DNA of 64,000 nt from Loxodes magnus. Its lineage: Eukaryota; Ciliophora; Karyorelictea; Loxodida; Loxodidae. The translations under genes and the position numbers were made by a program. The DNA is taken from the NCBI GenBank assembly GCA_946699065.1, contig CAMPDV010000288.1, positions 248,001 through 312,000 on the forward strand, read 5' to 3'. Positions within the stretch are counted from its first letter, which is position 1; every line of letters begins with the position of its first letter. The notes beneath the pieces were generated by a model. That model saw only the letters and a program-made list of their open reading frames with translations. It had not been told where the DNA came from and made no database searches. Shown here in pieces: positions 10,661 through 61,275 of the stretch.

Positions 10661-10664
10661 GCCA

Positions 10665-11296: not shown

Positions 11297-11299
11297 GAG

Positions 11300-19355: not shown

Positions 19356-19369
19356 CAGCTATATTAGCA

Positions 19370-20265: not shown

Positions 20266-20821
20266 AGATATGCTAGGAGGTGATACGTTTGGAATGGACA
20301 GAGAAATAAAACTGTCGATACTTCAGTGGCAGATAGTAGATTAAGCTATTTACAGTGTTTAAGGAGCTTGAGAGTGTCAAGAGGTTTGTATACAAATGAA
20401 GCTTCAAAATACAGTTGATGGATAAGAATTTGCTAAGGGATGTAAACAAAAATCGAATAGCAAAGCACTAGAGTAAAACTGTCTTAAGAGCTAGGCGTAT
20501 AACTAGTATAAGCTAAACTTGTTCTTACATAGAAGTAAGATTACAGATATGATTCATACTTCAATGGTTCTGGACATAACCTAGCAACTAAAATTCTCAG
20601 ATTATGCTAAAGAAGATCATAGTAAGAACTAACTAGTCAGCATCTCAGAAAGCCAATGATACTGTAGTCTAGCAACATCACTAAGATGAAGCAATCTCTA
20701 ATCTTTCTTACATACTATAATAGAATCTAATAAACTCATATTGTTTAAACCAGATAATCTAATAAGGTATGAAAAATAAGTACTAAAGCCTTAAAAATTA
20801 TTTGACTTTTAATTGAATTAA

Positions 20822-22330
20822 ATGGGTTGCATGGTAGCGAAACACAAACCACAAATGAAGAAAGCAATATGGGTCACTCCAGAGACTAATCTACTGCCAG
20901 ACAGGTAAAAGAACACTCATGTCTAGATACTACTCAAGAAATTCAAAAAGTACTCAAATAAGAGTCAGAAGCTAGATTTTAAAGCTTTTTTATAGATTCT
21001 CACTGATCTTAATGAAAGACATAGGAATATGGCAGAGTCTACGTTCAAACTTTTTGATTTAAGAAGGATGGGAAAAATAATTTTTAGGGATTTTTGCGTA
21101 GCTCTATATGTTGTATGCCATTGAAAGAAAAAAAGATTCGCTTTGTGTTTGATGCTGATGAAAACTCATTTTTGACATAAAATGAGTTTTAATAAATGCT
21201 TAAGACGACGATAGGCTTCGCGAAGAAATTCAACAAAGCACCGTAAAATGAGCAGGATGATGTTTGAATAAACAGCGCAACCAAAAAAATCCTGAATCCG
21301 AAGTAAAAATAATCCTATGAATTGTTCTACGAATGAGCGGCTAAGAATTTGGACACCTCGTCTCTGCTTAATATTTTTGAGATTGTTCCTTCACCAGAAA
21401 AAGAGAAAACGATAATCAAGCAAATAATGACTGACGTGTAAAATAAGCCACTCTAACCAGGAGAAGACTGCATGAACTAAGTTATAGTTGGTGAGAGTCT
21501 TGGAAGCTTTATATTGATTATGACAGCGAAATTTTAATTAAGAAGAGTAATCGAGTCAGCTAGCGCTCTAGCGAATGAACATGAAGAAAAGAAAGCGGAA
21601 TCATATGAATAGTTCAAAACTATCAAAACTAGTAGATTGGCTTTAAGATCCTTAGAATTTGATAATTCTGTTATAGATGGAGAGATTAAAGGAACTTTGA
21701 AGAATAGCCTGATGCAAGACTATGTTTATATTCTAGTTCCTTAAATAGTCTGGAAGAACTTATTCAGCTGATATGAAGGAGGCCCAATATTTCTGAGGAA
21801 AGTGATTGTAACTAGAAATGAAAATTCCGTATCGTTTGTCGAACTCTATCCTAAGATCGTAAAACTTCATCCCTGCTCCCAGAGTGGAAACTTTGATAAA
21901 GAGATGAAAAATGGGTATTTTTAAGCTCGGTTATGACGATGGGATAGGTTAAATCTAATAAGGTCGAAAAGAACAAATCATCATAAGAAATCAGACTCTG
22001 GACAAAAACTCCAGGAGCAGAGTGAAATTTAGTGACTAACTTAGATGAAACTGTTTAAGATGTAGGAGTAGAAACTGGCTAGTTCTTTATGATTGAATAG
22101 AAATGTACAGAGTATACAAAAACAAGGACAAAGTATAATTGGCCTAGAGATAGAATTTCTAAGAAAATGGAGTAAAAAGATTGAAGGGAAAACTTTGAGG
22201 TAGGAGATAGACAGGATGTTTGGAATCCTTTAGCAGAAGATTCATTACAATTTAATAGCTCAACACAAAATACATTATAGTCCATTTCATAAACGAAAAG
22301 AACAAGCAAGATAGACAGCTACCAATCGAA
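20822..22330 (+). pseudogene. USP32-type deubiquitinase, N-terminal half (EF-hand, DUSP and UBL-like), catalytic core missing
   Basis: ATG 20822 starts MGCMVAKHK, a possible N-myristoylation signal. An EF-hand pair follows; one loop reads DADENSFLTQNEF. Then comes FEIVPSPEKEKTII, and a DUSP-like domain with VPQIVWKNLFS, an in-frame TGA where DUSP domains have Trp, then YEGGPIFLRKVI. Next is a ubiquitin-like stretch with EIRLWTKTPGAE, GVETGQFFMIEQK and NWPRD. This order matches USP32-family deubiquitinases. Two -1 steps are needed, at the A7 run 21128-21134 and the A5 run 21907-21911. No Cys-box or His-box of the USP catalytic domain follows; the sequence grades into repeat-like DNA after 22.3 kb. 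It is truncated, or the rest was lost or displaced. Confidence 0.6.
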
Positions 22331-22549
22331 AGGAAAACAATAAGGTTACTAGAGTTACAATAAGATAATAGTTAATTATTCTAGACCAAAGGAAGTAATA
22401 CCAGTAGTTAAAAGACTAAAGAAAAATCTTTGAGAAAAGAATATTGATTATTATAAGCATTAAGTTGTTTATTGTTAGAGGCGATAAAAAAAGGAAAAAA
22501 GAGAGCAATATTATTTTAAAGTTTACGGTTAAGATTGTAGTGTGTACTA

Positions 22550-25200: not shown

Positions 25201-25779
25201 GTTACTTTGATACTCAACGCTTTTTATGTTTCTTAGAATTAAATAAAAATAAATTTAAAGCTAGTTCCTATAAGCTACTATTTCCTTTGAGTACCTACTT
25301 CTTAATGTATCATATCTTTATATAAGCATCTTTAGCTATTCAGTCTTACTATTTATCCAATCTTTAGATTTAGTTTTCCTATAGTTAATCATATGATATG
25401 ACTATCTATTTTCAATCAACTATAAACTATCTTTGTATACTGATCTCTTATATCTTCATCTCTTAATTAATCTTGACACTATATTTTGTTTTTGTCTCTA
25501 TCTTTCATTCTGACTCTTACCTATTGAGCATCTTTATAAGTTTCTTTCTTGCAGCTAATTAATAAACTTATATTTACCTTTTACCTTCTTACAGAACCTC
25601 TAAACTAACTTACTCTTACTCTATATTCCTCTATTTTACTTACCATATCGACTTATATCTTCAATGCTTAGGTTTACTTATAGGGTTTTATTTATTTACT
25701 TCTCCAGTTAAGTACTTAGAGGATGATAATTAGCAAGTATGACTCCCAATCAAGATACCAGATTCATATTCTATTCCTA

Positions 25780-26060
25780 CTGACTTAGTAAATTCGCTTT
25801 CTATCTCCTATATATTAATAGCTTTCTGTCCTTTATTTTCGGTTGATTATGTAAATAGAGTAAGAAGACTTTCAATGCGATCTTCTGCAAAAGATGGAAG
25901 CTTAGATATATTTGATAAGTTCTAGGGTATTAACACCCTTAGCTGTGTTTATCTCTAGTGATGATGAAACAAACAGAGAATCTCCTGGCACTGAGCTCTA
26001 AAATTTGATCCTCAGATGAAAAAATTCTAGCTTAAGATTGACAAACAACTTGACTTACGA
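25780..26060. repeat. dispersed segment, related to 31.6-31.9 kb
   Basis: The stretch around tgtttatctctagtgatga matches ttgtatttatctctagtgaa near 31,750, with similar flanks of about 250 bp. It lies upstream of the 24-25 kb TRIM-family copy, as the other lies upstream of the 30 kb copy. Both are probably parts of a duplicated gene or its leader. Confidence 0.5.
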
Positions 26061-26989
26061 AATCAAAGCATGACTCTATTTCATAAACCATTCTCATAAC
26101 TTAGGAGACCAATTAATACCCTTGATCATCAGAATTAGAACCCTTTTCATAAAAGCTAAGTCTTAATACTCAGTTACATAAATAAAAGGATTGGCAACAA
26201 AGTACTCAAAAAAGCCAGGAAAAGAAAAGTTCTACTAACTGTATATTTAAAAAGCTTCAGTTCAGTTGAGCGTTTCTATAAGCTAACACACACTCTGCTA
26301 TAAAAGCTTCTCGTTCTAACATTTTGTAGACAGATTTGAAGAGAAGTATCTCTTATTGGTATTGGGTTAAATAGGAGTGTGATATAAGATGTTAATAGTT
26401 TGTTAGTTGTAAACTTAGAAGCAATATTACGCTTTAAGAGATTATATTTCTTATCCTTTACTAATCATACTAAATGGTAGGCTTATTTTACTAGTTACAT
26501 TTCAATGATGAAGCTTCTTAAGATGGTTATTTTTGAGATCGAAAGCAATTGATAGAGTTACATGGTAATGAAATATGTTAATGAGTAAGTTGTAAAATAG
26601 CTGTTAATCTATAGCATCTGATTGAAAATACTAAATTTCTGACTACTAAAATAAGCCGTTGTAGCAGTATTTGCTTAATAGAAATGAAATCTATTATGTT
26701 ACCTCAGTTCCTCATTTTCTGATGCATTAACTTTCTCCAGCTTGGTGCATTAATTTGGATTTCTTATTAACTTTTTATAATTTCCTGCATATAAAATTTG
26801 AAGCTTCTATGTTATAAGTGGATAGATCTTCCTACTCTTTACTTAGTATTAACTAAGCTGACTCTTTTCTTATTACAGCATAGATTAAATGTCATTTTAT
26901 CATTTTAGCCTTTATTTTAACCTTTAAAGCTATAATTCTTTATTTACTTAGGAAATATCAAATGCTAGTAAGATTAATAGAGAAACAAA

Positions 26990-28760
26990 TTAGTCTTATG
27001 ATAGTTCCTTAGCTAACACTTTTCCCACTTCCTATTGTTTTAGGCTGTCATAGCACATCTTATTAGTTTTAACTATTATTTCCATCCTTCAGCTTTATTT
27101 CCATTATATCTAGATAATCCATCCTGGAAATGCTTTTTCTTTATTTGCAGTCCTATGCTTCTTCAATCATTAGAGCTATATAAATACTTATTCCCCTTCA
27201 TGCTTCTTTTGCCAGTGTTAAAGTTGCTGACTATTACTAATATTATATAATTAAAACATATGTACTCTTTCCTTATTTATAATGTCCTACGAATGTAAAT
27301 ATCATTCTATGTAATTACCCTTTGAAGCAAATTAATATCATATATCTCACAAAGTACCTTTAGAATCTTATCTTCCGATAACTGAAATTTTAATATACTA
27401 TAAGTTCATCCACACTCTCTTTATTCTCAAGGCTTCACTCATATTTCTACTGATCAAACTACTTTTTATTCCTCTTTCCTTTTTAAATACAACTCCATTA
27501 TATAGTAGACTTATTATTACTTCTATAGTTTCTTTTTATTAAAATACTAAAGATCCTTTAATAACTACATTTCAAGCTATTCATACTTAGCTTAGTAATC
27601 CTACTTTAGATTCTAATTTTACTACTTTATTCTAGCTACTCTTATAGTTATTAAGTTGCTTAATTCTACTAGTTCCATGCTCTTTTAGCTTACCTCTTAT
27701 TAGTCTATTCTAGTTCTGCTTTTTTATATAAATTGCTCTATATAGCTTAGTTAAATACTCTATTACTTCAGTTCCTCATCTTATCTCTTTAATCTTTATT
27801 CTGTATGTTTTAATCTAGTCATTCTGCTCTTTATGGCTATTATTCTTACCTAGTTAAACTAATTTTCCTCTATTTACTTTAATAGCTTCTATGTATAATC
27901 TGCTATTGTTAGCTTTTCTCCTTTATAGCTCTTAATTTAAGTTACTAGACTTCGCTTTAGTCTTTAAGATAGGTTTACTTCTTACAAATCCAAGTCATCA
28001 AACTTAATTAATCCTCTGATTAATCCTATCTCAATCTTAGTCAAATAAGTAATTCCTTTTATCTTAAGGAATAATAATTCTTATTATATCTATTTACTAC
28101 TAAACATCTTACACTTAATAGATAAATTAATAAATATCTTAAACTTACTTTTTAAGCTTTACTATACTTAGATAATATTAATATCTTTTGGAATGCTTGA
28201 TACTTTCTTACTATTTTAGTCTTTTAGAAACTAAGAGTTTTAGTAATTTAGTATAAGATATTTATTTATGTTCTTTTAATGAATAAAGAACTTACAAATT
28301 TACAGTTTAAGTTTGTAGTTCCGTTTATATTAATACCACCTAATTCTTTTAACTTTAGTTGCTTCTAAAATCCTTATTTATATACTGTTCTCTATATTTA
28401 TGTGTGAGTTAATTCTTTAGTCATTTCTTAATCCATTAGAATCCTCATTTATTCTACAGTCTACTTAGCTTCTTAGATTAGCTTCTGTTTCTTCTACTAA
28501 TAATTTTAAAATACCAAGATATTTTAAGCTTTTATCTCAATTTTCTAAGTAGCTCATTACTTGCAACACAACAATCTTACAACTTTATTCTTCTTCTAAA
28601 GATAGATTAATGAATCTATCTTTAGTAGTTGATTTAATCAAATAATAATTATATCACATCTAGTAGCAAGTGCTTTTATTTTCCTTTCTACAGTGTAACT
28701 CTTATAAACTTCTCATAACATAATATTTATTCAAACAAAGCTCTGTATTATACATAACTT
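26990..28760 (-). pseudogene. TRIM-kelch family paralogue (copy 2), decayed
   Basis: From about 28.7 to 27.3 kb the minus strand encodes the family's upstream block (RKIKALATRCDIII), then a long coiled coil including TQKLLKQIEENQFNQVRII, LKHTEQRLKRQDEELKQQS and QDYQAKYEQLEMQLLKDLQ. The last 300 bp match the 3' end of the intact gene at the nucleotide level (ataatggaa ... aataggaagtgggaaaa), but the kelch frame is broken there. Family role (E3 ligase with kelch substrate-binding domain) is inferred only from the intact paralogue. Confidence 0.5.
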
Positions 28761-29369
28761 CAATATAGCAAACTTTAGAACTATACAATCATTATATAGA
28801 AAAAGGAATGAGAAAGAAGTTTAATAGATGCTACTTGCTGATGTATATAGAGGATATTAGTTTATAATTAGAAGTTAATAATCTCAATTCGTTTGTTGCT
28901 TAATATGCCAATTTTATAGTAATGAAGCTTATTATACTTACTTATAATCTGATATTCTTTAAACAATGAATGAAGGACTATTGTTCTCTACTGCTAGTAA
29001 TCATTTATTACTTATTTATATGAATGACTATCTTTATGTCTTTATATCTTACTTATTTTCTATCTTTCATATCTTGTAAATAAAAGTTTTAATATCACTT
29101 TCTTATAATAAGCATGTAAGATACTAATTCATCAAATTTAAAACTGAATACTAAAACTAATTTAGACTACTATTATTAACTAATTTATTACTTAGTCTTG
29201 TATCTTTAAAAGTGTAAATATCATGAAATAACATTCTTATTATTATTTTGTTATTTGTAAATCTAACTGTGGGCTTATATAACTTCATTATACCTATCTA
29301 TTTATTATTTTTAACTTCAAATTTTACTTATAACTGACTAAGCTTATTGTTTAGTAACTAAAATAGAGT

Positions 29370-30650
29370 TTATAAATAGCATAGAAATCCTCTTTCTAAA
29401 GATATAAGTTTATTTTAGTTAAATAAAGGTGACTAATACTCTATTTATATAATTAAATAAAACTATTTTTTACTTAAAATTCATAAAATCTATCTCTTCT
29501 TTTTCCCTTTTAGTCCTCATTGCTTCTTTCTTAGGATTACGAGTTCTATCTTATTACCTTATTAGTGAAGTAAAATCGAACAATCTTCAATGAATGTTCA
29601 TAAATACTTAGATTTCTCTATTGTTAGCTTTATTATCTTATAGCTTTATTAGCTCTTTTTATCATCTCTAAATTATCTTCAGTTAACTAAGTTTATCTAA
29701 GAAGTTTAAATCTTTAGATTCCTCATTTCTACTTTTATTCTACTACCTTAATCAAAAATTTGTCTTTCATTCATCCAGTTTTTTACAGAGCTTGCTTACC
29801 TACAAATTATCTAGCTACATTATCAATTTTATTACATTGTAGAGTCTATGTTTGACTGTAGAAGCTTTAAGAGTTGTAATCTTACAAAACTAAGATAGCA
29901 GACTTAATTTGTTCTCCAAGTAGTTTAATCTTAAATTTTATTCTAAATCTGTTTTTCTCTAGATTAATAATTTTATAGTACCTTCTTACTACTAAATACC
30001 TTACACTTAATACTTAAATTAATAAATATCTTATAAGATCTTTTTAAGCTTTACTATTATACTAAATTATTGGTAGTATCTTTTGAAGTGTTAGATACTT
30101 TCTTTATAGTCTTTATTAGTAATAAGTTTTAGATTTAGTATCTTTTCATTTAAGGATTTAATTAACTTAATCATTTAAGTTTAAATTACTTTGTGATTAC
30201 ATTAATACCGCCTAAATTTGCTTAAATCTAGTTATAAGTATCAAATCCTTAATTATATGCTTGCCTCTATATTTGTATGTGATGTAAGGCGTTTAGTTCT
30301 TTTTTAATCCATTAGAATCTTTATTAATCTACAGTCTATTTAGCCTTCTAGATTTGCTTCTGTTTCTCCTAGTGATAAATTTAAAATATCGAATGATTTT
30401 AAGTTTTATGATTCAATTTTCTTATTAGTCTATCACTTGAAATGCAACAAAACTTACAACTTTATTCTTCATTCATCCTCTTCTAAAGATAGATTTGTGA
30501 GTCTTTCTTAAGTAATTGATTTAGTAAAATTATAATCATATCACATCTAGTAGCAAGTGCCTTTATTTCCCTTTCTAATCCATTTTTTCAAAACGATAGT
30601 GAAACTCTTACAAGCTTCTCATATAATAATTATAAGAGTCATGCTATTAG
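29370..30650 (-). pseudogene. TRIM-kelch family paralogue (copy 3), partial
   Basis: This copy aligns with copy 2 over the block LEREIKALATRCDMIII and over the motif IQHFKRYYQQFSIIVKLKK plus QGIQQQEG. A helical tail follows with several TGA-as-Trp codons (KSRNEESKDLNFLDKLSQL, KEAMRTKREKEEIDFMNF). No RING and no recognisable kelch repeats remain. It sits about 2.0 kb from copy 2 in the same orientation, so the two form a tandem duplication. Confidence 0.45.
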
Positions 30651-31539
30651 CATTTTTAACACTAATCTTATTTTTATTTCTATTACTCTTTTATAAGATT
30701 AAACTAGCAAATATTGCTTCATTATTGTAGAGTAACTAGTAGATTAATACTCTCATATAAATATGCTTTCTCTAAAAATACTGAGTCTTATTATATTCAT
30801 CTTAAGTTTATTTCCGAAACTTAATTATAAGAAAATTATGCTAATTATCGTTTTTTAACAAGACTCTGATTATTACATCATACTTCAACATAGCAAACAC
30901 TACAATCATTAGAAAGGAAGGAGAAGGAAGATTAATATTAATTACTTGTTGGAGATAAAGGAACATAAACTTCTTACTAGAAACTTAATAATCTTATTTT
31001 GTTTGTTGTTTAAATTACTAGCTTTATATTAATGAATTTGATCAAACTTGTTTATAAAGTGATAGAAAGATAGAACTTGAGTGACTATTGTTCTCTTATA
31101 CTTCTAATAGAATATTTATTACCTGTTCATGTTTTAATTTCTTTATATATCTTTATTAAGATTTATCTTTCATATCTTTAAATAAGAGTTTAAATAACTT
31201 TCTTATATCATATCTTAACCATATAAGATACTCAGTCATCAAATATTAAAACTAATTTCTAGTTCTATTTTCTACTAAATAATCATTTATTTGTATGTGA
31301 AAATATCCTAAAAGTAAAATAATTACTTTCTTTATGTTTATTTTTTTATCTATAAATCTAGCTGTGACTATATCACTCTATTCTGCGTATTGATTTATTA
31401 TTTTAACTCCAAACTTTTATTTGCTGGGTCTAGATTTACTATGTTTTAGTAACTAGATGTAGGAAGATAATTTAGTAAGTTAGATTCTTGTAACTGATCC
31501 TTTTTATATTCAATTTCTATAGGTTAATTATAATCTCTT

Positions 31540-33162: not shown

Positions 33163-35424
33163 TCAAAGCTAACATTTTTCCCACTTCCTATTGCTTGTTG
33201 CATTTATATCATAATAATATATTATATCTTGCTATTCTGATGAATACATCCATATTTTATTTTTATCATAAATTCCATTATATCAGAAATATTTATTAAA
33301 ATTTGGAAATTTTTATCCATTATCTGCTATATTTTTTCAATCAAATGATAATGTTTACTTCAGATCATTATTATTATCAAATATAAATATTTATTCTTTT
33401 TCTTATACATAAACTGCTTATACAGATTATGCTTCTTTAGGCAATTTTAACGAACCTGATTATTATCATTTATTAATTATTATATCATAAAAGCATATGA
33501 AATCTTTTCTTTGTTTAGAGTTATTTATATCAAATCTTCCTCCAAATGTGAATATCATGTCATATGCATAACAAGTTCCATGTTTAATTCCTTTATACAA
33601 ATGTTGAGCTATCTAGCTGCATTAATTTTCTTTTATATTATATATTTCACATTCAGAAATGTAATCGGATTTAGCATCTTATCCTCCAATAATATAAATG
33701 ATATTTAAATTATCGAAAGATAATGAAGTATATTTTCTGGGAAATATTAGATTAGATTGATTAACAATTTAATTATTTTCTATTTTTAAAGCATTCTACA
33801 GATATGTATTTTAATCATTTCCTCCTACTAAAATTATCTAGGTATTACTAGTCTAATAACAGGAAGTATAACCTTCGCTTATAGATTAAAAATTAGATAT
33901 TGTTGATAAAATCTATGTTTAAGGCATAACTGATATATTTACTGATTAAAGATTATTTGATCCACGTGGTATTCTTAAATAATTAGTTCATGAAATGGTA
34001 GATTTATTATTGTTTCTTATTTTTATTATTTCAAAGTTTTTTAATTCATAATTAAAAATACTTCATCTTATTAATTCTTTTTATTATGACATTTATAAAT
34101 TAAAATTTTCTCTATCTTCATTAAGTTAACTAAGTAACTGTACTTTTTCAGTTAGGTTTTAAATAATCTACTACTTTTATTTTATATCTTACTCTAAATC
34201 TTATTTCTATTAATTCAGTTATTATATTTATTTATTAAGAGTTTAATTATTAACCATTAAAATGCTCGTTTATTCTTCTAGTTACTTGTTCTTTTCTCTA
34301 TAGTCCTTATTTACTTATTTTAGTCCTTCTATTTATTATATAAGCTACTAAGATGTTTTATTTAGCTAAAAATTCTTTTATTTCAATTCTTCTACTTACT
34401 TACTCATGTTTTCATTCGCTTTCTATAAGTTTATTATCTACTCTTTCTATTCTTCAATCTTTATGTCTTATTATTTCTTGTCTTGTTCTATTTTATCTAT
34501 TATATTTCTATTTTCTCTTTACTCTTTCTACAGTTTTTATAGTTATTAATCATAATTAGTTAATGTAATACTAAGATTTGATATTTTATCTTCATAATTT
34601 TTTCTTTGGTTATCTATTTTTTCTCTTTACTTTTCGAATAACTCACTTTCGTAAAGATCTTATAGAACAATGTTGTAAATATATTTGCTTTCTTAGTTTA
34701 AAGCTTTTCAATACATTTAATTTCACTCCTAGTTATGTAACTACTCTTATAAACTATTTATCTTCTATTTCTTTAGCTCGACTTGATCTATAGTTATCTC
34801 TTCAAGTTAGTTTATATCATTTATTTGTTTTTACAAGTTATTAATTTTAGACAAGTTAGAAGATAACTCTTTTTTTGATCTATCGAATTAACTATTAATT
34901 TTATTAAATTGCTACTAGCAAATATGAATAACTTAGGAAATTATTTATTTATTAGTTTCTAAAATAATATTTCTAGTATCTAGCTTAGCTTTATTTACCT
35001 ATCATTGATTTTAATTAAAAATTACTCTTTTATCTTATAAGGAAATAGTTTCTTTTAACTGTTTAAGTTTTATCTTAATTTCCTCTTATAAAGTCTTTAT
35101 TTTTTCCTATACTAACATAAATTCATGATTATGAGTTGACATTAAACAAGTACTACATATAAGTTAATTATCTCTTACACATATTATAGATAACTCCAGC
35201 TGATGTTCTTTACATAGATTCTAAGCTTTAGTTTCTATTGTTTTAAGCTAGTCTACAGATATTGTTGATTTAAAGTTATGAACAGTACAGATTATCATAT
35301 TGTTCCGTTTTATCATTGCGTTGAGACATTTTTCGCAAGCTATACACTTACACTCCATTTCTTTAGGCTTCTTGTTAGTCTCGTTAAACTCATCATCACA
35401 TATCGAACATAGAGTTGCTTACAT
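33163..35424 (-). CDS. TRIM-kelch protein (RING, B-box, coiled coil, kelch repeats), 753 aa
   Basis: A single frame of 754 codons runs from ATG 35424 to TGA 33163-33165 with no indel, TAA/TAG read as Gln. Residues 6-49 are a RING-type cluster (C6, C9, C25, C27, C30, C33, C46, H49). Residues 71-100 are a B-box (C71, H74, C82, C90, C93, H98/H100). Residues about 105-450 are coiled coil. Residues about 500-753 carry kelch-like repeats (ILVGGNDQNTYLQN, IIYIIGGQDAKSDYISECE, IFTFGGRFDINN) and end NRKWEKCQL. Eight internal TGA codons (residues 141, 234, 239, 454, 479, 653, 696, 714) are read as Trp; residue 653 follows YDIIINK, the kelch Trp site. Family role: E3 ubiquitin ligase whose kelch domain binds substrate. 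It is the best-preserved member of the local family. Confidence 0.8.
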
Positions 35425-36189
35425 TTATTATTTGATTTCAACTAAAACTTATTTATTTTAATAGTTCTCTAATTATAAATAAAACTATAACGTATACACA
35501 AATAAGATGCTAATACAACTATTCCTTTCATTTTAATGTGTATACTTAATACCAAAAGGACTGTAGATTTTTATTATTATATTCAAAAATATGATTTATA
35601 ACTTTAGTTATTATCTATGCTATGGCTACTTTAGAAAAAATTAGTCAGTTAAAGTGGAATCAATATAGCAGATGATAGAAGAAGAAAATTTTGGATACTA
35701 AAGGGAGTTAAGTGAAGAGAGATTTTACAGTCTTTATATTGAATAATATTTAAAGATTTTTTCCTTACTTTAAGCAATGTTTTTGAGCATCTTAAAGGAG
35801 AGAGCTTTTGTTGAGATAATAAGTAAGAAAACTTATATTTGAAGAATATTAATACTAAGCCAAGAGTACAGAGTATTATAAGATTTTTAAATAAGGGAAT
35901 TATGCAATCGTTAATAATGCTAAATACTTAAATTAAAGGTGAATTTTCTATATAATTTAAAGATAAAAGTGATAAAAATAAGAAACTTGAAGGCCGGCTT
36001 TTGAATATAATTGGTCTATAGATAAATATTTAGTTATAAGAGTTTGGCGATTTTACAAGGATAGATATTTTAATTTTAAACAACACTATTTTTTTGATAA
36101 CTTTATTTAGATAACTTTGAAGTCTATTTTAGTAATTAAAAATTCAATATCATACAGAGAAAGCTACTATTTTTGCCTAATCTAAAACA

Positions 36190-38930
36190 AACTTTTAGAT
36201 TTTTTAGGTAATTTTCTAAATTAAAGTTCCAAGTCGAGACATTTTTTATCCCTCTCCCTATTTCTTTCTTCAGTTTCTATTTTTGTTACTCTTTTTTCTT
36301 AAATAAATCTTGATTCTAACTTATGCTTTAGCTCATTACAAATGAAGCATTGGCTTTTTTTAGAATTTTTTCGGATATTAATAGTTAAGCAATTCCCTTT
36401 GAAGCAAATTAATTTTATAAGAAAAAACATTTTGGTAATTTAGATAAGCTAAATCGTGAATTCTTATGTATTTCTATACCTTCATCGTTTTTTTATACTT
36501 GCTCAAAGATGATTCTAGTTCTGACCTAGACGGAATTAAATAATTCATAAGGCAACAAATAATCTTAAGGTTAACGATTTTGAGGCTTTTATAAGCCAAA
36601 TTGTTATAAAGAGTTGGTGAGTTCCATTTAGATATTTTATTTATATTTTACTGACCTGGTTTGAAGGCTTTTCTATAGAAATTTCTTAGTTTTGCTTATC
36701 TTTACTTTATCATTTTGTTTTATAATAGAATAAGCTATCTTTCATTGTTCCCTTGCGGTTAATTCCTTCTAAAATATGTTTTATAATATCTTTTCTCTTT
36801 AATTATCTCCATTAGGCTTTTAAAAATCCATCTAGCGGTCTTCTTAAAATTTTTGTAGCAGTTTTCTTATATCAAATTTTATTTGAGTATTCTTCTTAAA
36901 GTACTATTAAATGCAACTGATATTTAATTATGGGTGATGGCTACAAATAATATTAAACTCATAATTAAAATTTTCTTTATCTTAATCTTTCACTTTCCTT
37001 CACCAATTATTGAATCCTTACGTTTCTTTCTTTTTTTATTAATCTTACCATACACCTTACTTGTGTTGCGAAACCACATACATCTTCAGGCAACTTTAAG
37101 TATTATTTTTATTCCTAAATTGTTAGTTTCAATAATTTATCCCTCTATTAGCTATACCATTTTCTTAGATTCTTTCCAAGGTAGACTTCGACTAACTAGA
37201 TTTTTTCTATAGCTTAAAATTTCCTTATCTTGTTTCCTACTAAGATAATTCTTTCTATCCAAATATTGCTATCTACCGTACCCAGCTTATAACCATCTCT
37301 TTTATCCCCATAATTTTGCTGGTTACAATTTATCCTTTTATATCGTAGATATTTTACGTTTGATTAAAAGAATTTAAGCGTTGCATTTTAACATAATTAA
37401 AAGGGAAATTAATTAGTTCAGTTGCTATGTTTTCTTTCTATTATTCTACATTGAGTCCAAATTTTAGCTTTTACTATTAAACTAAATGTTCATGTCACAA
37501 CTTCTTATTCTTAGTCCTCCTAAAACTTAACTAATAATAGCAAATCTAGCCAAACTAATATCTAATAAATCATTCTTTCAAACTCTATTTTTACTAAAAT
37601 AAGAAGGTATCTTTTGATATCTAAAATACCCTCTTACTATTTTTAACTTTGCTTGCAATCTTCTAAATCTATCATTTCTATCTATAAGTTCAAAGTTTTA
37701 TTTATTTGACTTTTATATACTCCTATAGTTATGCTTTTGTATTATATTTGTATCCTTTCCATTCACATGAAGATCTTAGATATTCTTCAGTCTAATTAGT
37801 CTTTTTTCATATTTTCTATAAGTCAATTATTAGTTCTTAAATATCTGAATTATCCAAGTTTTAGCTTCAATTTTCTCAGTTAGTTTTTAATCTTGAGTAG
37901 TTGGAACTTATAGTTCTATTTTATTTTTTATCTCCCTTCTAAATAAAAATCAGTTAACTTCGTCTTATCATTTAGATTTACTCATATGTTTATCATATCT
38001 AATTAGAACAATCAAACTTGGATTTCCTTTATAAATCCTAATTTTCTAATCAACACTATGACTTTCGCAGGTTTCTCTTAAGATTAGAATCGGAATTATT
38101 CTTCTATACTTAACTATTTTCATCAATAAGTTTATAGTTTTAAAAGTGAGTTTATCTTATGATTATTTAGCTTAATTAGATTGAAAATTCTACTAATAAA
38201 AAGTAATTTTCTATAGTTATTTGATTTAATAATTTTAAGCTAATAATTAATTAGATACTTTAAGCCTTTTTTAAGTTACTTAATATTTATTAAAATATAA
38301 ACCTAAAAGTAAAGAACTAATTCAAAAATTTCCTTTTATAAACTACTTCTTAATGGATTGATATTTGCATCAAGTTATTTTTAGCTATCTATTTTCTATC
38401 CAAATTTGGCTTTTTTTCTTAAAATTATTTATAAATTATGGCCCCAAGATTTAGTAACTCAAGTCTCACCATTTCATTTTTGCTTCACTTTTTCCTTTTC
38501 AGCCATAACTTGCAAATCTTTCATAGCTTCATCTTTTAACTAATCATAATCTTCTTTTTTATTTAACTCCTACTTTCATATTTCCTGTTCTGATTCTTTC
38601 GTTTTTGCATCTTCATAAGCTTCTATTTTTATACCTTAAAAATAATTCTTTAAACCTGTATGCTATTAATGCTAAATCTTCTAGCAGGTCTTTATGGACG
38701 CTTAGCGAGCTTCAACTTATTTTACTTTCTTCTAATATAATTACTCTATTTAAACTACCAAATTATAGTACGAAACAATCTCAAGAGATTTTTAATACTA
38801 ATTTAGGCTTAAAATTCTTAGGGCTTTTAGGAAGTGCTGATCACTCTAATCTAATCCAATATTTGCCAATTATCAGTCTTTTACTTTTACTAGTATTAAA
38901 CATTCTTTATTATCTACGTTTAAGATGAAA
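36190..38930 (-). pseudogene. TRIM-kelch family paralogue (copy 4), partial
   Basis: At 38.9-38.4 kb the minus strand reads as a charged helix (EAYEDAKTKESEQEI, a TGA, KQELNKKEDYDQLKDEAMKD). 38.1-37.5 kb resembles the block shared by the 24, 28 and 30 kb copies (IRYDKHMSK). Near 36.4-36.2 kb there is a Cys-rich cluster (ICFKGNCL, QCFICNELKH) followed by a helix (ETEERNRERDKK). Frames change repeatedly. It may comprise two neighbouring fragments rather than one gene. Confidence 0.35.
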
Positions 38931-38949
38931 ATTGTCAACCCTTTAAAAT

Positions 38950-40980
38950 AATTGGTTCCATTAACCTTTTTCTTAACTAAAGCAGCTTTTTGAACTAAGT
39001 TAATCATATACTTTATGTAAACTCTATCTAACTACAGCCTCTTATATGATCTGACAATTTGGCTAATTTTCCTAATCTTCTACATTATTATTCTTTGTAT
39101 ATAAAGCATTTTATCTAGACTGTTGCTTGAATTATATCTGACTCCTTCTGTTCTGAAAACTTAAATTTAAATATTTGGTTATTTAATTTCTTCTTCTTAG
39201 TATCTTTTATTTACCTATCTTCTCTAATTTCTACTTAATCTTCAAATGGATAAATAGCACTCAGCTTATACTTTATCCCTTTTCTGTTTTTAAATGCTTA
39301 GTAAAGCAAATTTCAATTATAACTAACTAGAAGCCAAACTTCCTTTACTTCCCAGACTCTCATTACAATCCCTTTGCTTTTAAAGTTCTATTTGATTTTA
39401 TAAGATAAAGTATAAAATTTTAGCTTTAATAAGTAGCAAATTAGAGCAAATGATAGAACCCCTTGAATCATAAAGTTACCATAGAAGGAAACAAATATAA
39501 ACTAGACATAAGATTAGTAATTAAGAGATTAGCTCTTTCGTTTTCATCATCAATATACTAAAATTAGACAGAAAAGAGCACCATTAGTGTAATATCCAAA
39601 GGTGGACGATAATATGCAGAATTAGTTATCCCTGAAACTATTTTTGTATAATATCAAGCGCTAAAACTAACAATGCTTGATAAGATAAATATTATAGATT
39701 TTAAGTACCAAAAGAAATAAAAGATAGCTGATTAAGAGAGTTATATTCAATAAGATTATAACGATAAATCAATAGAAGTACCAAAAGAAATAGGTTTAAG
39801 TATATTGTTATTTCAATGTATATCATATTATTTAAGACTTCTAGTTTACTAGGAAGAGCTATAATTTATATATAATGATATCCTTTAATCTTTAAGAGTA
39901 AAATAAACACCAAACTAAGATTCTATATTAGATCTATTTATTTACTTTATATAAAATTATAACTATTACTACTGCTTATCTAAGGAAGGGATATTACAAG
40001 AAGAAGATTAAGAAGCTAATATGATATATAAAGGATTATTTTTCAAAAGCAAATCTCAAAAGATATCTTTATTAAAAAACTTACATTCTCTAAATTATCT
40101 GGATCTTTAAAGTATAGTGCTAAAAGCCTTAACTTTGTATTTAGTCCCTATATACTAATAATTAGATATTACTAAAGAGATAATTATTTACTATGGATGC
40201 TTTAAGACAGCTAAGCTCTCATCTAGCTGCTTACTCTAATCTGCCTTTAATATACAGTTTCATACTAATTAAATAAATTCCTATTTTATTCATTTTTAAT
40301 AAAATCTATCTATCTTAGTAAAATTATAGGAAAGAAATATCTCAGAATCATAAAGTAAGACTTTATCTTCTTAGCAACAAAGTAAATCATACTTAATACT
40401 GTTAGTTTTTGTTTCTTGACATAAGGATTTAAGTGCGAATTTCTTTCTTTCTTATTAAGCTGATAATATTATTTCTTATTTTACCTTTTTATATCGAATA
40501 ATCGAATAGTTATAAAAAGTCTTGCTGAAAGTTGAAATGAATAGATAGAACTTTTTATGAGTTAGACTTGCAGTGTATTTTGTACTTCCTTTTATTTAAG
40601 CTTTGGATAAAATAACTTTGAAGGCTAGTATAATCAACCCTATACAGAATCTTTAAAAAATGTTTAAGTAAGAGTACTTTGCTATTTGTTCTCTTTAACT
40701 TAAACACAATACACATTGCTAAAAAATAAAAAAGAATGATAAACAAGTAAAATTAGTCGAGTACTACTAACATTTCACGAAATTGAGTGTCTATGCCATT
40801 AATCGTACATGCAAGAATTAGTATCATACTAAAAAATAAAGATAGGATAAAAACTAATCACTTATAAAAAAAGTAGATTGCTTATAACTTTTAGTGATAT
40901 ACATCCATGTTCTTGCTAATAAATGCTATTATATCGTACCATGAAAAAATGATTACTTTATAAAGTTCTATCAAGAAGAA
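38950..40980. other. low-coding region upstream of tRNA-Cys
   Basis: Scattered weak protein-like frames only. A YIDD-like tetrapeptide on the minus strand near 39.55 kb has no surrounding reverse-transcriptase motifs. No gene claimed. Confidence 0.35.
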
Positions 40981-40988
40981 TATTAAAG

Positions 40989-41060
40989 GGACAAGTAGCT
41001 CAGTAGTAGAGCATTGGACTGCAGATCCAGAGGTCGAGGGTTCGACTCCCTCCTTGTCCT
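40989..41060 (+). tRNA. tRNA-Cys(GCA)
   Basis: A full cloverleaf is present. The acceptor stem ggacaag/cttgtcc pairs perfectly, with discriminator T as usual for tRNA-Cys. The D-arm is gctcagtagtagagc, the anticodon stem ttgga/tccag with loop ctGCAga, and the T-arm gagggttcgactccctc. A TTTT run follows directly as a Pol III terminator. No intron. Anticodon GCA reads TGT/TGC. Confidence 0.93.
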
Positions 41061-41067
41061 TTTATAT
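41061..41067 (+). terminator. Pol III T-run after tRNA-Cys
   Basis: The discriminator base is followed immediately by tttt, the usual RNA polymerase III termination signal. Confidence 0.6.
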
Positions 41068-41118
41068 TGAATAAATGTTGTTCTATATTCAGATATTTTA
41101 CCTTTTTTAATATAAAAA

Positions 41119-41191
41119 AGCTTCCACGTGGGTTTGAGCCACGGATCTTTCGCTTACTAAACGAATACTCTGACAACTGAGCCATAATTTT
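41119..41191 (-). pseudogene. tRNA-Thr(AGT)-like, 5' acceptor strand lost
   Basis: On the minus strand the D-arm (ggctcagttgtcagagt), the anticodon arm ttcgt-ttAGTaa-gcgaa, the T-arm (gtggctcaaacccac) and the 3' acceptor half ggaagct are intact. The 5' half that should read agcttcc is replaced by AT-rich sequence (aaaatta), leaving at most two or three pairs. It faces the tRNA-Cys gene, 58 bp apart. It is probably a decayed tRNA-Thr; an edited or unusual tRNA is less likely. Confidence 0.6.
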
Positions 41192-41199
41192 TTTTAATT

Positions 41200-43550
41200 A
41201 AATAATTTTTTTAAACGAACTAACTAGTAATTTTTAATATTTTTGTATTGTAGAATATTTTTATAGCTTTATGCTTAAGAGAGGCTTTTTACTTTCTTAG
41301 AATTCTAATATCAACAATTGATTCATTAATTTATTCTCTCTAATTATTTATTTAAAAAGGTTTTTTTGAAATTTCACTCTACTGGCATATATTTTGATCT
41401 TATAGTTCTAATTAAGACTTTCCAATCCATCTCTAGTAACTCTTTTTCTCTTTCTCTTTCATTAAAATACTTATTTATTTTTAAGCATATCTCTCTCTTA
41501 TATTGTCTTTTGCAAATAATCTTTAAGGGAGGTAATAGTGATTTGACTTAAATTAAGTTCTTTATAATTTGTAACTTATGATTAAAGCTTTTATTTTATT
41601 ACTTATTAAATAGATTTATTTCTTAATTAGACTTGCTTTGCCAATAGGTTAAATCAATTTTTTTCTTCCCTTTAATTTTCTCTTATTTAATGTTATCTTA
41701 ATCTATTATCTACGATGCAAATTTTCTTATTGTTTTTAGTTATATCTGAATATAACTTGGATATCTAATCATAATTAGCTTATTTTTTCTACTTAAACTC
41801 TCGTATCCACATTTGATATAATGATAGATATTGATTCTTATTGTTTAACTGTAATTATTAGAATTAATTTTCTAAAATAATAGTTAATTTTTAATCTCCC
41901 AATTCCTTTATTATTTTATCTAAAGTGTTGGTTTATTTAATTTAAATATTTAGCTGACTCTCATATTATGATATTTTTGATCTTAATTATTATACCTACT
42001 AGAGTAAATCTTATTGGTTTATATCTTTGTTATGTATTTAATTTAGATAATCTTTATGCAAAGCTTTTATTGCTAACTGTAGTATCTATATTCTATTTGG
42101 CGATTTACCATTATCTCATTGAACCTAGTTATGTTAAAACTATTTCATTAGATGAGTTTCAATTTTGATTTAGATATTTTAGATAGGTAAATTATCTTTA
42201 CACATTATCTGATTATGATGTACTTTAGAACTCTTGCTTAGCTATATTAAAATAAGTTAAGTTAATTAATTTTATCTTAATACTGATATTATTCTACTAC
42301 CTTGGTGATGAAGGAAATTAGAAGTATTTTAATATTCTATATAAACTATTTTATTTAGTACTATTGAGATTTAACTACTTCCTTACTAGCTTATTAAGTT
42401 TTTACTTAATTTATAATTGAATCTATACCAACCTTTCTATCCTTGATATCTGATTTAACTGCCTTTATCATTGATTCAATATAGATATATAATAGTCTAA
42501 TCTTTATTTAATAGCTTTTATACTTGAATCTATGTAGCTCTTTGTTTGCTAGACTGCTTCTTAGGAATTGATACATCTATGTCCTTAATGTTATGTTTGT
42601 TCAAATTAAACGCAGATTCTTTTACTATCTAATAAGCAATAAAGAGTTAGTTACTATTATTTGAGTATCTAGCAGATGTCCTAAAGGTGAAATCTCTTTT
42701 CTTATTAGATAGCTAAATTAATACTCTATAGTGTCTCCATTGGTCTTTAGAAACCTATTTTGTGCTTGTTGCATACAAAATTCTTTTTTATGCTATAAAT
42801 GGATTCCAAGCATCTTCCACAGATTATACTTATTTTAGACTGCTTTAGTACTGCCTAGAGATTAAGTATACAGTGAGAAATAAAAAAGGTTTGAGTAACT
42901 TAATGAGGAAGTATGATTGAAATATAGGGAGTTGACATATTGTTTAAGATATGCTAGCAGTTAAGAAAAAAGGAGTAAGAATGAAGGAATTGGTGACTTA
43001 TAAGATTGGATATACTTTCTTAATTGAAATAAACTGAACAGATTATTTCAATTATAGGTAATCATTTAATTAAGAAACTAAATACAGGAAGTAATATATA
43101 GAATTTAGATACCAAGTATAATAGACAAAAGTAACCTTAGAGATTATAATTGGAATTCGATAGTCATAGTTCTAGGTAGTCTAACTCTTTAGATATATGC
43201 ATCAAAAGCTAATATAAGAAACTTCAATTTTACCATTTATTCTTCCTAGCAAAAAGCTACCATAGAAATTATCAATTTTACTCCTTAAACATATTTCAAT
43301 TATAAGCACAAAGATTCTATGTACCCATTATCACCTTTATTTCATACCATTTAGGTATGAAATAAGATCTTCATATTAGATAGTTTTGGATAATATTCTT
43401 TTACTTTTAATAGAAAAGCAGCTTATTGAGAATTAGTAAAAGGTAGCTTAGAAAATAAAACGTTGAGGTAAAAACTTATTTAGATTAGTAGGTAGTAATT
43501 AGACTTAAAGACAATATGGACTAAATACTTAAGTCTAACCAGTAAGAAAA
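41200..43550. other. AT-rich region, no clear gene
   Basis: Mostly pyrimidine- or purine-biased A/T-rich sequence. Short protein-like patches are present on the plus strand after 42.9 kb, but no frame could be followed. Confidence 0.3.
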
Positions 43551-43559
43551 AGAAGATAA

Positions 43560-44190
43560 ACCTGTTTTTACTGAAAGCAACTCAAGCTAAAAGAATTAAA
43601 CAACTTAAAAGGAATATTTTTGTTAGCTTAAAAGCTAAAAATGTTCCTAGTTTCTTTCTTAAAAACTAAATTCTGACGATCTTAGCAAGCAAATACATTA
43701 GCTTCCTTTAAGAATCTTTTTCGAGTATCCTCTAAATTATAAATTTGATAAGAGTAAAGTACGAAAAAAAATACTGCTGAGAGTCTTAAAGGACTTTCTG
43801 ATCTAAAGATGGAACTATCTATCTTACTACAACTCTAAAAACAAAAAATCCGACTTAAGAAGTCTTTATTCAGTAAATATAAAGATCAATATAAGCTTTT
43901 AAGTAGAATAGAAGAAACTGGGTTTAAACTCTATAGATAGTTTAAATAGCTATACGATATTTCAAGAGGACATCACATAATAAGCAAAAATTTCAAAGCA
44001 AGTATCTTAGGAATATCAATCTTAATTAATCAGAAAATCCAGATAAAATTCTTGCAAGCTAAGAAACTTTTTAATCATCATAATCCAGCTGAAGTTAATT
44101 CATAAAGAATTAAATAACATAAATCACTTCTTGAAACCCCTATAACCTTATAGAGGTTCTTTTAAAAGAGATGAAGCAAAAATTAATTGT
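43560..44190 (+). CDS. coding-like K/Q-rich region
   Basis: Plus-strand frames give KATQAKRIKQLKRNIFVSLK, then after a frame change LSDLKMELSILLQLQKQKIR, YKLLSRIEETGFKLYRQFK and AKKLFNHHNPAEVNSQRIK, ending near a TGA at about 44.17 kb. Lysine-rich and helical. No family is recognised. Confidence 0.3.
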
Positions 44191-44199
44191 TGATGACTT

Positions 44200-47100: not shown

Positions 47101-47300
47101 AGTAAATATTTACTCTAGTAAAGCTATTAGAGAATATTAGAAATAAATAAGGGTGTGAGGCTTTATAACTAAGAAAAGCTTTCTTAATTCTAAGTGAATG
47201 CAGCTAATACTTTGAATAGCATCAAGTTATAAGCAAAAATAATAATTAGCTAATACATATAATAACAAAGACAAAATTATACTAAGTTAAGTTTAGCAAT
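44200..47300. other. low-coding region
   Basis: A/T-rich with scattered short protein-like patches; no feature could be supported. Confidence 0.3.
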
Positions 47301-47314
47301 AATAGAAGGAATAT

Positions 47315-47680
47315 CGGAATACTTTGTGTTTCTGTGGAATAGCTGGAGATTATACCTCGTGTAGAAAATATAAAATGCAGAAATAAAAGATTCAAATACT
47401 ATTCCTGAACTAAGTTAGAACTCTCTAAGATTGGTATCTCTTAAATAAAATAAACATAACATATAAGCTAAATTAAAGACTAAGAAATATCTAACCTAGT
47501 CTGAAAGATCTTAAGAGATAATTTACTAAAGATATTAAACTAAAGATTATTAAATCTCTTTATTAAAACTATAAGCAGAATTATTATCAATCCTAAAACT
47601 AATAGCAGGGATTCAAAATTAGAAAAACCTACTAGATAAAGGTTACTATCCTTAGTGCTTCTTTAAAATAAAGAAGTTTA
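47315..47680 (+). CDS. coding-like fragment with a Cys cluster
   Basis: One plus-strand frame reads TLCFCGIAGDYTSCRKYK and then a Lys/Gln-rich helix (KLNQRLRNIQPSLKDLKRQF). The CxC...C arrangement might be a metal-binding remnant, but no family fits. Boundaries are uncertain. Confidence 0.25.
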
Positions 47681-53597: not shown

Positions 53598-54943
53598 AAT
53601 CCTTAAGTACTAAAAAATAGGTTGGAACAATAAGATGGATGGCGCCCGAGTTATTTGGAATGAGGCCGAGGTATAGTATCTATTCTGATATATATGCTTA
53701 TGGAGTTGTTTTATGGGAGATAATGTCTAGAAAAATACCTTTTGAGGAAGTAGAGGAAGGAGAGTTGCGAGAAGGGATAAAGAAAGGTGAAAGAGAGGAA
53801 TTACCTGAGAATTGTGTGATAGAGGAGATAATAAGGGAGAGTTGAAAATAAGAGGCTGACCAAAGAATGAGTTTAGAAACGTCATTGTAGAAGTTAGAGA
53901 AGATCAAGCAAGAAATGAGAGAGTAGGAGATAATATAACAAGAAATGAGAGAGTTCGAAATAATAAAGAGTAATGTGGAGAAATTTGAAGGAGAAGAGTA
54001 AAAGGAAGTTGGAACAAATAAGAAAGCGAAAGTACAAGAAAATGAGGTAGGATATGTTGGAGAGAAGAGAAATGGAAAGATGCATGGTTATGGGGTTTAT
54101 AAGTATAACGATGGATCTCGATATGAAGGTTAATTTGTAGAAGATCTTAAGTAAGGAAAAGGAACTGCTTATTTTGCAGATGGAGAAATATATGAGGGTG
54201 AGTTTTTCAAAGACAAGAGACATGGTTATGGGGTTTATAAGTATAACGATGGAGATCGATATGAAGGTCAATATGTAGAAGATCTTAAGTAAGGAAAAGG
54301 AACTGCTTATTTTGCAAATGGAGAAATATATGAGGGTGAGTACTTCAAAGACAAGAGACATGGTTATGGGGTTTATAAGTATAAGAGTGGAGATCGATAC
54401 GAAGGTTAATTTGTAGAAGGTCTTTATTAAGGAAAAGGAACTTACTACTATGCAAGTGGAGAAATATATGAGGGTGAGTACTTCAAAGACAAGATGCATG
54501 GCTATGGGGTTTATAAGTATAAGGATGGATCTCGATATGAAGGTCAATGAGTAGAAGATCTTAAGTAAGGAAAAGGAACTTACTACTATGCAAATGGAGA
54601 AATATATGAGGGTGAGTTTTTCAAAGGAAAGAGTCATGGTTATGGAGTTGAAAAGTATAACGATGGATCTCGATATGAAGGTTAATTTGTAGAAGATCTT
54701 AAGTAAGGAAAAGGAACTGCTTATTTTGCAAGTGGAGCAATATATGAGGGTGAGTTTTTCAAAGACAATATACATGGTTATGGGGTTTATTAGTATAACG
54801 ATGGAGATCGATATGAAGGTCAATGAGTAGAAGGTCTTTAGCAATGAAAAGTAACTTACTACTATGTTGATGGAAGAAAAGAAGTGCAAAATTGGAATAA
54901 TGGGAAAAAAATATAATAACTTAATATTTTAATTTAATTTTGA
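53594..54943 (+). CDS. truncated kinase-MORN protein (C-lobe + MORN repeats), inverted copy
   Basis: The frame from ATG 53594 (made at the duplication junction, overlapping the neighbour's TGA as ATGA) to TGA 54941 gives 449 codons. It starts just before the activation segment ([12 protein letters not shown]), so the glycine loop, VAIK lysine, HRD and DFG of the parent are missing and it cannot be an active kinase. The MORN array (units like [16 protein letters not shown]) is intact. In-frame TGAs: 53843 (kinase Trp site), 54548 and 54824 (MORN Trp sites), and 54845 (a Gly site in the paralogue). The last suggests relaxed constraint. It may be a pseudogene or a dominant MORN-only product. Confidence 0.65.
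53596..54940 (+). repeat. inverted duplication, proximal arm
   Basis: About 1,345 bp nearly identical, in opposite orientation, to 59447-60790. The arms have the same length with no net indel. Homology stops abruptly at both ends, inside the kinase domain on one side and a few bases after the MORN array on the other. Confidence 0.9.

Positions 54944-59406: not shown

Positions 59407-61275
<1,869 letters not shown>

What the first reader, a model, noticed from the sequence alone, without database searches (positions are those of the whole stretch)
33163..35424. UGA used as a sense codon (Trp) and as stop in the same genes, with UAA/UAG = Gln
Seen: the 753-aa TRIM-kelch frame has eight internal TGAs, no indel, and ends at TGA. 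The full-length kinase has TGA at the near-invariant C-lobe Trp and at a MORN Trp. The USP32-like sequence has TGA at the DUSP Trp before YEGGP. The Gag knuckle has TGA at its aromatic site. The 227-aa gene at 2845-3528 has one early TGA followed by 200 clean codons. TAA and TAG occur throughout at Gln-like sites. Known: karyorelictid ciliates use UAR=Gln with UGA as Trp or stop depending on context. Inference: the host is a karyorelictid (Loxodes-like) or a lineage with the same code.
Basis: partly seen in the sequence, partly recalled or inferred. Interest (0 to 1): 0.9.

Follow-up and report, generated by a model that had tools for sequence, protein, structure and literature searches.

The report
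Ciliate UGA means tryptophan and stop

Summary
The headline observation holds. On the MINUS strand, 35424-33163 encodes a 753-aa B-box/coiled-coil/kelch protein with eight internal TGAs and a terminal TGA. The window lies in a 705.7-Mb assembly; the published Loxodes magnus macronuclear assembly is 706 Mbp, and its eRF1 is 95% identical to the L. striatus record. Thirty intact paralogues test the code internally: normalised TGA-TGG, TAA-CAA and TAG-CAG exchange is like that of known synonymous pairs; selection continues past the internal TGAs; all 30 end in TGA; none has a sense TGA in the last 28 codons. The eRF1 GGQ glutamine is TAA. Conserved Trp sites in a kinase, a DUSP domain, a kynurenine transaminase and the kelch repeat are TGA. 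A tRNA-Trp(CCA) arm core occurs 75 times, 72 on one contig; the 34 genes read there have a 4-bp anticodon stem. The same core with UCA occurs 0 times. Some support fails: two of the eight kelch TGA sites never show TGG, the early TGA of the '227-aa gene' is CGA in 11 of 11 other copies read, and no intact knuckle is in the window. The code (NCBI table 27) is known for Loxodes; the size of the tRNA array may be new.

The parts
33163..35424 (-). B-box / coiled-coil / kelch protein gene, 753 codons + TGA stop, read with table 27
   Evidence: 30 intact paralogues of 37 fetched in the same genome
35002..35004 (-). internal TGA, aa 141
   Evidence: TGA 8, TAA 18, TGG 0 of 30 copies: no Trp support at this site
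34723..34725 (-). internal TGA, aa 234
   Evidence: TGA 10, TAA 18, CAA 2, TGG 0 of 30: no Trp support at this site
34708..34710 (-). internal TGA, aa 239
   Evidence: TGG 18, TGA 8 of 30
34063..34065 (-). internal TGA, aa 454
   Evidence: TGA 16, TAA 8, TGG 3, CGA 3 of 30
33988..33990 (-). internal TGA, aa 479
   Evidence: TTA 21, TGA 8, TGG 1 of 30
33466..33468 (-). internal TGA, aa 653, kelch Trp
   Evidence: TGA 29, TGG 1 of 30; Trp in 12 of 12 printed PDB domain alignments that reach it
33337..33339 (-). internal TGA, aa 696
   Evidence: TGA in 30 of 30
33283..33285 (-). internal TGA, aa 714
   Evidence: TGA in 30 of 30
33163..33165 (-). terminal TGA (stop)
   Evidence: TGA in 30 of 30; indels that are not multiples of three follow it in the printed flanks; no sense TGA in the 28 codons before it
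60493..61230 (-). full protein kinase domain; MORN repeats follow at about 59500-60320
   Evidence: PF07714 1.5e-61, MORN 9.5e-70
60541..60543 (-). TGA at the kinase C-lobe Trp
   Evidence: aligned to Trp in EGFR, the SRC-ABL ancestor and CTR1, and to Leu in two B-Raf chains, among the 5 PDB sequences printed
53618..54904 (+). second kinase/MORN copy without the kinase N-lobe; TGA at 53843-53845 is the same site
21655..21807 (+). DUSP domain exon
   Evidence: PF06337 1.5e-7
21769..21771 (+). TGA at the DUSP Trp before YEGGP
   Evidence: Trp in 5 of 5 PDB chains printed (USP11, USP4, 3jyu named only as a ubiquitin hydrolase, USP15 twice; E 0.0015 to 0.022)

Best explanation
The window is macronuclear DNA of Loxodes magnus (or a very close Loxodes), read with the karyorelict nuclear code, NCBI table 27. 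UAA and UAG are glutamine. UGA is tryptophan inside genes and the stop at their ends. Shown here by sequence: the sense meanings, by paralogue evolution and homology; a terminal TGA; a TGA-free zone before it; eRF1 motifs of the published UGA-only Loxodes type; and an amplified tRNA-Trp(CCA) with a broken top pair in its anticodon stem. Inferred: that this 4-bp-stem tRNA reads internal UGA by near-cognate pairing, and that eRF1 wins at the terminal UGA because the mRNA end is close (the published model).
For: 30 intact copies, normalised exchange: TGA-TGG 70.9, TAA-CAA 80.2, TAG-CAG 68.4, TAA-TAG 62.7, against synonymous CAA-CAG 80.9, GAA-GAG 79.5, AAA-AAG 103.7, GAT-GAC 61.8 and non-synonymous TGA-AGA 13.6, TGA-TTA 6.0, TGA-GGA 0. 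Third-position excess continues after the internal TGAs (ratio 1.67 before the first, 1.35 to 1.56 in four later segments) and dN/dS after the first TGA is 0.37 to 0.58 in 8 of 8 pairs computed. Terminal TGA 30 of 30; sense TGA 0 of 840 codons in the last 28 against 212 of 21850 elsewhere, with 30 TGG in that zone. eRF1: 6 of its 20 TAR codons fall on columns that are Gln in 108 to 119 of 119 homologues, GGQ among them. Trp columns: kinase (45), DUSP (48), kynurenine transaminase (54), kelch (107). Host. tRNA.
Against: In raw events TGA changes most often to or from TAA (14.1 of 56.1; TGG 8.0); only after correction for codon frequency is TGG the first partner, and the TGG figure rests on 8 events. 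Of 27 internal columns with TGA in any copy, TGG also occurs in 6 and TGA alone in 3 (one an insertion in 2 copies); in the other 18 TGA stands beside other codons. dN/dS is higher after the first TGA than before it (0.37-0.58 against 0.14-0.46). The copies are related, some near-identical. The 28-codon zone was chosen after seeing the nearest sense TGA at 29. The other 14 TAR codons of eRF1 do not fall on conserved Gln columns. No transcript, ribosome-profiling or protein data. 5-bp-stem tRNA-Trp genes also exist.
Confidence: 0.95

Rival explanations
1. UGA is always a stop; the long frame is a decayed gene, or several short genes, and the TGAs are disabling mutations.
For: 7 of 37 fetched copies are frame-broken or partial, so broken copies exist in the family; constraint is weaker after the first TGA; the dispersed repeat at 2845-3528 does carry a TGA where 11 of 11 other copies have CGA.
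Against: Three TGA sites are TGA/TGG in 30 of 30 intact copies; codon periodicity and dN/dS below 0.6 continue downstream of all of them; conserved Trp sites in unrelated proteins are TGA.
Confidence: 0.02
2. The code is the Condylostoma type (table 28), with UAA and UAG also used as stops.
For: Same sense meanings. Recalled, not seen in a call: a small minority of karyorelict transcripts may stop at UAA.
Against: All 30 intact copies end in TGA; both eRF1 genes have TGA where the L. striatus protein ends; eRF1 motifs equal the published L. striatus ones, described as UGA-only. Only two gene families were tested.
Confidence: 0.04
3. Internal UGAs are programmed readthrough or selenocysteine sites of particular genes rather than a general code.
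For: None specific.
Against: TGA is the commoner Trp-type codon outside the last 28 codons of this family (212 TGA against 30 TGG) and stands at Trp sites of unrelated genes; normalised exchange with Cys codons is 1.5 (TGT) and 0 (TGC).
Confidence: 0.01
4. UGA is read by a cognate tRNA-Trp(UCA) encoded elsewhere or imported from mitochondria.
For: [quoted passage not shown] My search would miss a UCA tRNA with a different anticodon arm, and covers only this assembly.
Against: One 16-base arm core occurs 75 times with CCA and 0 times with UCA; the 4-bp-stem form matches the published UGA-reading type.
Confidence: 0.1

Closest known systems
Karyorelict nuclear code (NCBI table 27), Loxodes and Parduczia
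   Same: UAR = Gln; UGA = Trp or stop; coding UGA and UAA depleted for about 20 codons before the stop, UAG not (PMC11441545, passages); the kelch family shows the same for all three codons
   Different: Nothing found in the code. The assembly size matches the published L. magnus macronuclear assembly, so it is probably the same genome.
Condylostoma magnum code (table 28)
   Same: UAR = Gln, UGA = Trp, context-dependent stop; short-stem tRNA-Trp(CCA); no tRNA-Trp(UCA) found (PMC4967479, PMC13092985)
   Different: There UAA and UAG also end genes; not seen in the two gene families tested here
Blastocrithidia code
   Same: [quoted passage not shown] changed eRF1 residue 70 (PMC12153298, passages)
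   Different: UAR = Glu with UAA as the stop there; UAR = Gln with UGA as the stop here; residue 70 is Gly there, Ala here

Membership tests
Karyorelict nuclear code (table 27) | UAA and UAG encode Gln | tested here: met
   TAA-CAA and TAG-CAG exchange like synonyms; three eRF1 columns that are Gln in 119 of 119 homologues, GGQ among them, are TAA, TAA and TAG
Karyorelict nuclear code (table 27) | UGA encodes Trp inside genes | tested here: met
   TGA-TGG exchange; Trp columns in kinase, DUSP, kynurenine transaminase and kelch
Karyorelict nuclear code (table 27) | UGA is the stop | tested here: met
   Terminal TGA 30 of 30; eRF1 TGA where L. striatus eRF1 ends. By sequence only, two gene families
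Karyorelict nuclear code (table 27) | Coding UGA depleted just before the stop | tested here: met
   0 of 840 against 212 of 21850 codons in one gene family, zone chosen afterwards
Karyorelict nuclear code (table 27) | Host is a karyorelict | tested here: met
   705,730,643-base assembly against the published 706 Mbp; eRF1 95% identical to the record named L. striatus
Karyorelict nuclear code (table 27) | Termination depends on nearness to the poly(A) tail | not testable with these tools
   Needs transcripts and ribosome profiling
[quoted passage not shown]
   U.C top pair in 34 of 34 genes read in C148:155300-165299
[quoted passage not shown]
   0 UCA against 75 CCA for one exact 16-base arm core; other arms not excluded
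[quoted passage not shown]
   Needs a readthrough reporter or tRNA biochemistry
Condylostoma code (table 28) | UAA and UAG also terminate | tested here: not met
   0 of 30 intact copies end at TAA or TAG; one gene family plus eRF1 only
Blastocrithidia code | UAR encodes Glu | tested here: not met
   TAA-GAA exchange 19.9 against TAA-CAA 80.2; Gln columns of eRF1

The most novel reading that the evidence does not exclude
Loxodes keeps an ambiguous UGA workable by gene dosage: a tandem array of about 66 tRNA-Trp(CCA) genes (72 arm cores on that contig; 34 read, all identical and short-stemmed), against three 5-bp-stem genes read and no UCA copy of the arm, makes enough UGA-reading tRNA to outcompete a UGA-only eRF1 everywhere except beside the mRNA end.
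Probability: 0.3. Interest if true: 0.5.

Novelty: already known. Interest (0 to 1): 0.25.

Why it matters
It confirms, from one raw window and then by an internal evolutionary test, that a genome can run with no codon reserved for stopping. The published code is reproduced with evidence that does not need transcripts: codon exchange among paralogues. The tRNA-Trp array gives a concrete, countable decoder to test.

Tried and rejected
Codon-usage gene finding trained on one gene found one segment and, with a lower threshold, 20; used only to locate genes. Pfam scans: 16000-31000 in six frames gave DUSP, a weak Ubiquitin_3 and a weak B-box; part of the frames of 1-12001 and 34000-51000 gave a weak FUBP_C and the kelch gene's own B-box. 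About half of the six-frame space of the window was not scanned. The RF00005 genome search scored 63 of 42786 candidates; the 30 loci cut out hold Lys (32) and Ala (14) tRNAs by ARAGORN, so it could not answer the Trp question. A yeast tRNA-Trp query found nothing. RNA model R1 was built but could not be used. I considered the 227-aa gene as evidence for the code and rejected it. I considered the window's second tRNA match as a decoder and rejected it: the middle of its anticodon loop reads AGU. A tRNA-Gln(UUA/CUA) was not searched for.

Dropped before counts: 7 of 37 fetched kelch copies (L024, L026, L040-L042, L044, L045), frame-broken or partial; 6 of the 43 matches were partial and not fetched.

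Full report
WHAT WAS CHECKED. The finding's interval holds a gene on the minus strand, 35424 to 33163. Read with UAR = Gln and UGA = Trp it gives 753 residues with a B-box (Pfam 6.6e-6), a long coiled-coil-like middle (my reading) and kelch repeats (Kelch_4 2.5e-11). Eight TGAs are internal and the ninth ends the frame. With no codon forced to be a stop, an open frame proves nothing, so homology and evolution had to decide.

WHERE IT COMES FROM. The window is bases 248001-312000 of contig 288 of a 705,730,643-base, 7843-contig assembly. The published Loxodes magnus macronuclear assembly is 706 Mbp (PMC11441545, passages). The eRF1 of the assembly (L047) is 95% identical over its length to the record named Loxodes striatus; the other 119 of the 120 listed hits (7977 in all) are 44-59% identical. 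That this is L. magnus itself is an inference from size.

INTERNAL TEST OF THE CODE. The kelch gene has 43 matches in the genome, with 40 of 324 candidates scored. I fetched 37; 30 keep one frame to the end and 7 were dropped as broken or partial. Normalised exchange on their tree: TGA-TGG 70.9, TAA-CAA 80.2, TAG-CAG 68.4, TAA-TAG 62.7. Known synonymous pairs: CAA-CAG 80.9, GAA-GAG 79.5, AAA-AAG 103.7, TTA-TTG 86.1, GAT-GAC 61.8. Changes to other residues: TGA-CGA 21.7, TGA-TAA 21.7, TGA-AGA 13.6, TGA-TTA 6.0, TGA-TCA 3.3, TGA-TGT 1.5, TGA-GGA 0; TAA-TCA 32.9, TAA-AAA 30.2, TAA-GAA 19.9. Against this: in raw events the first partner of TGA is TAA (14.1 of 56.1), TGG having 8.0; the ranking depends on the correction for codon frequency. 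Third codon positions change most in each of five segments, before the first TGA (ratio 1.67) and after it (1.35 to 1.56). dN/dS after the first TGA is 0.37-0.58 in the 8 pairs computed, higher than the 0.14-0.46 of the first 140 codons but well below 1. The copies are related and a few nearly identical, so these are descriptive figures.

PER-SITE RESULT. In the 30 copies, aa 653, 696 and 714 are TGA or TGG in all 30; aa 239 in 26; aa 454 in 19; aa 479 in 9; aa 141 and 234 are TGA in 8 and 10, otherwise mostly TAA, and never TGG. Over the whole family 27 internal columns have TGA in some copy: TGG also occurs in 6, TGA is the only codon in 3 (one an insertion in 2 copies), and in 18 it stands beside other codons. 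aa 653 falls on Trp in 12 of 12 printed PDB kelch domain alignments that reach it, each weak on its own.

THE STOP. The last codon is TGA in 30 of 30, and the printed flanks show indels that are not multiples of three directly after it. No sense TGA lies in the last 28 codons (0 of 840; elsewhere 212 of 21850), although the zone holds 30 TGG, one per copy at RKWEK/RKWEQ. I chose 28 after seeing that the nearest sense TGA is at 29; the published depletion is about 20 codons (PMC11441545, passages). TAA is also lower there (32 of 840 against 1965 of 21850) and TAG is not (40 of 840 against 646 of 21850), again as published.

OTHER GENES. Kinase C-lobe: TGA in both window copies; of five PDB sequences printed, Trp in EGFR, the SRC-ABL ancestor and CTR1, Leu in two B-Raf chains. 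DUSP: TGA at the Trp of 5 of 5 printed chains, weak matches. MORN: TGA at a column that is Phe or Tyr in the sister repeats, so aromatic but not shown to be Trp. A kynurenine transaminase on contig 2 has TGA at a Trp kept in 4 of 4 printed chains; a second TGA in it is not Trp in any of the 4. eRF1: of 20 TAR codons in L047, six fall on columns that are Gln in 119, 119, 119, 116, 114 and 108 of 119 homologues; the first is the GGQ motif. The other 14 fall where most homologues have Lys, Ser, Glu or mixed residues.

DECODING MACHINERY. eRF1 occurs as two genes about 35 kb apart on contig 196 (L047, L048), both with TGA where the L. striatus protein ends and no TGA before it; the third match (L046) I read as Pelota (recalled identity). 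Against 119 homologues the eRF1s carry Ala at Glu55 (Glu in 119 of 119), RAQNIKS for TASNIKS, Ala for Ser70 and FLCENTF for YLCDNKF (human numbering recalled). PMC4695839 tabulates the same RAQNIKS, FLCENTF and Ala70 for L. striatus and says that in Loxodes the changed YCF and TASNIKS motifs together ensure UGA-only specificity (passages). A plant tRNA-Trp query found a tRNA-Trp(CCA) on contig 110 with a full 5-bp anticodon stem; two more of that kind were read there (L092, L094). A search with it scored 40 of 131 candidates. On contig 148 its relatives form a 241-base tandem array: 34 of 34 genes in the 10 kb read are identical, with T.C at the top of the anticodon stem, leaving 4 bp. The 16-base arm core occurs 75 times in the genome, 3 on contig 110 and 72 on contig 148, of which 66 lie in the array at 157314-173042. 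The same core with TCA has 0 matches. A 4-bp-stem tRNA-Trp(CCA) is reported for Loxodes, Blepharisma, Condylostoma, Blastocrithidia and Amoebophrya, and the same U.C pair for Amoebophrya and Condylostoma (PMC13092985 and PMC12005148, passages). The array was not mentioned in the passages I read; library searches were made, and the cited source for the Loxodes tRNA was not held. Tandem tRNA arrays are not special to Trp here: regular spacing is also seen for other tRNAs, Lys among them.

WHAT FAILED. The '227-aa gene' is one of at least 40 copies of a dispersed repeat (40 of 172 candidates scored). In 11 of 11 other copies read its early TGA is CGA. Those copies continue into a knuckle, complete (CX2CX4HX4C) in 8 of 11, with TGA at the same place in 11 of 11 and TGG in none; the window copy lost part of it by an internal deletion. 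'Gag-like' is a name from the motif, recalled; Pfam gave only a sub-threshold LMP match. One TGA of the truncated plus-strand kinase copy faces Gly in its sister.

MECHANISM. Most likely: default reading of UGA by the short-stem tRNA-Trp(CCA), and termination by a UGA-only eRF1 where the mRNA end is close, as proposed for Parduczia and Condylostoma (PMC4967479, passages and section 10). Competition and the role of the mRNA end are inference here.

VERDICT. The main claim and the interpretation are right. The code is known for Loxodes (PMC11441545), so novelty is low. The paralogue test and the tRNA array are the additions.

Noticed in passing
G000 contig 148:155459-209565 (L099 holds 155300-165299): 72 tRNA-Trp(CCA) arm cores on one contig, 66 of them in a 241-base tandem array; the 34 genes read are identical and have a 4-bp anticodon stem.
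   Followed up: partly
G000 contigs 221, 509, 288, 428, 1150, 703, 2791: The B-box/kelch gene is a large family, mostly clustered on contigs 221 and 509, often 13-16 kb apart and on both strands, with some broken copies; contig 288 holds a second copy that is 100% identical by BLAST rounding.
   Followed up: partly
window 41125-41186 (-): tRNA-like sequence (Rfam 36 bits, loop AGU) matching only model positions 6-65; the 5' acceptor half seems missing. A complete tRNA-Cys(GCA) lies next to it at 40988-41061.
   Followed up: no
window 53618-54904 (+) and 59482-60768 (-): Two closely similar kinase/MORN copies in opposite orientation about 4.6 kb apart; the plus copy lacks the kinase N-lobe.
   Followed up: partly
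window 2845-3528 (-): Internally deleted copy of a dispersed repeat; other copies carry a CCHC-type knuckle with a TGA at the same place in 11 of 11 copies read.
   Followed up: partly
L047 and L048 (contig 196): Two eRF1 genes about 35 kb apart, both with the UGA-only-type motifs and Ala at Glu55, which is Glu in 119 of 119 other homologues compared.
   Followed up: yes
L096 and L095 (contig 110): tRNAs called Met(CAT) and Arg(CCT) that share most of the body of the neighbouring tRNA-Trp, which suggests anticodon-arm turnover within one cluster.
   Followed up: no
window 17133-17240 (-): A second B-box match (Pfam 0.0046, below cut-off), perhaps a relative of the kelch gene.
   Followed up: no
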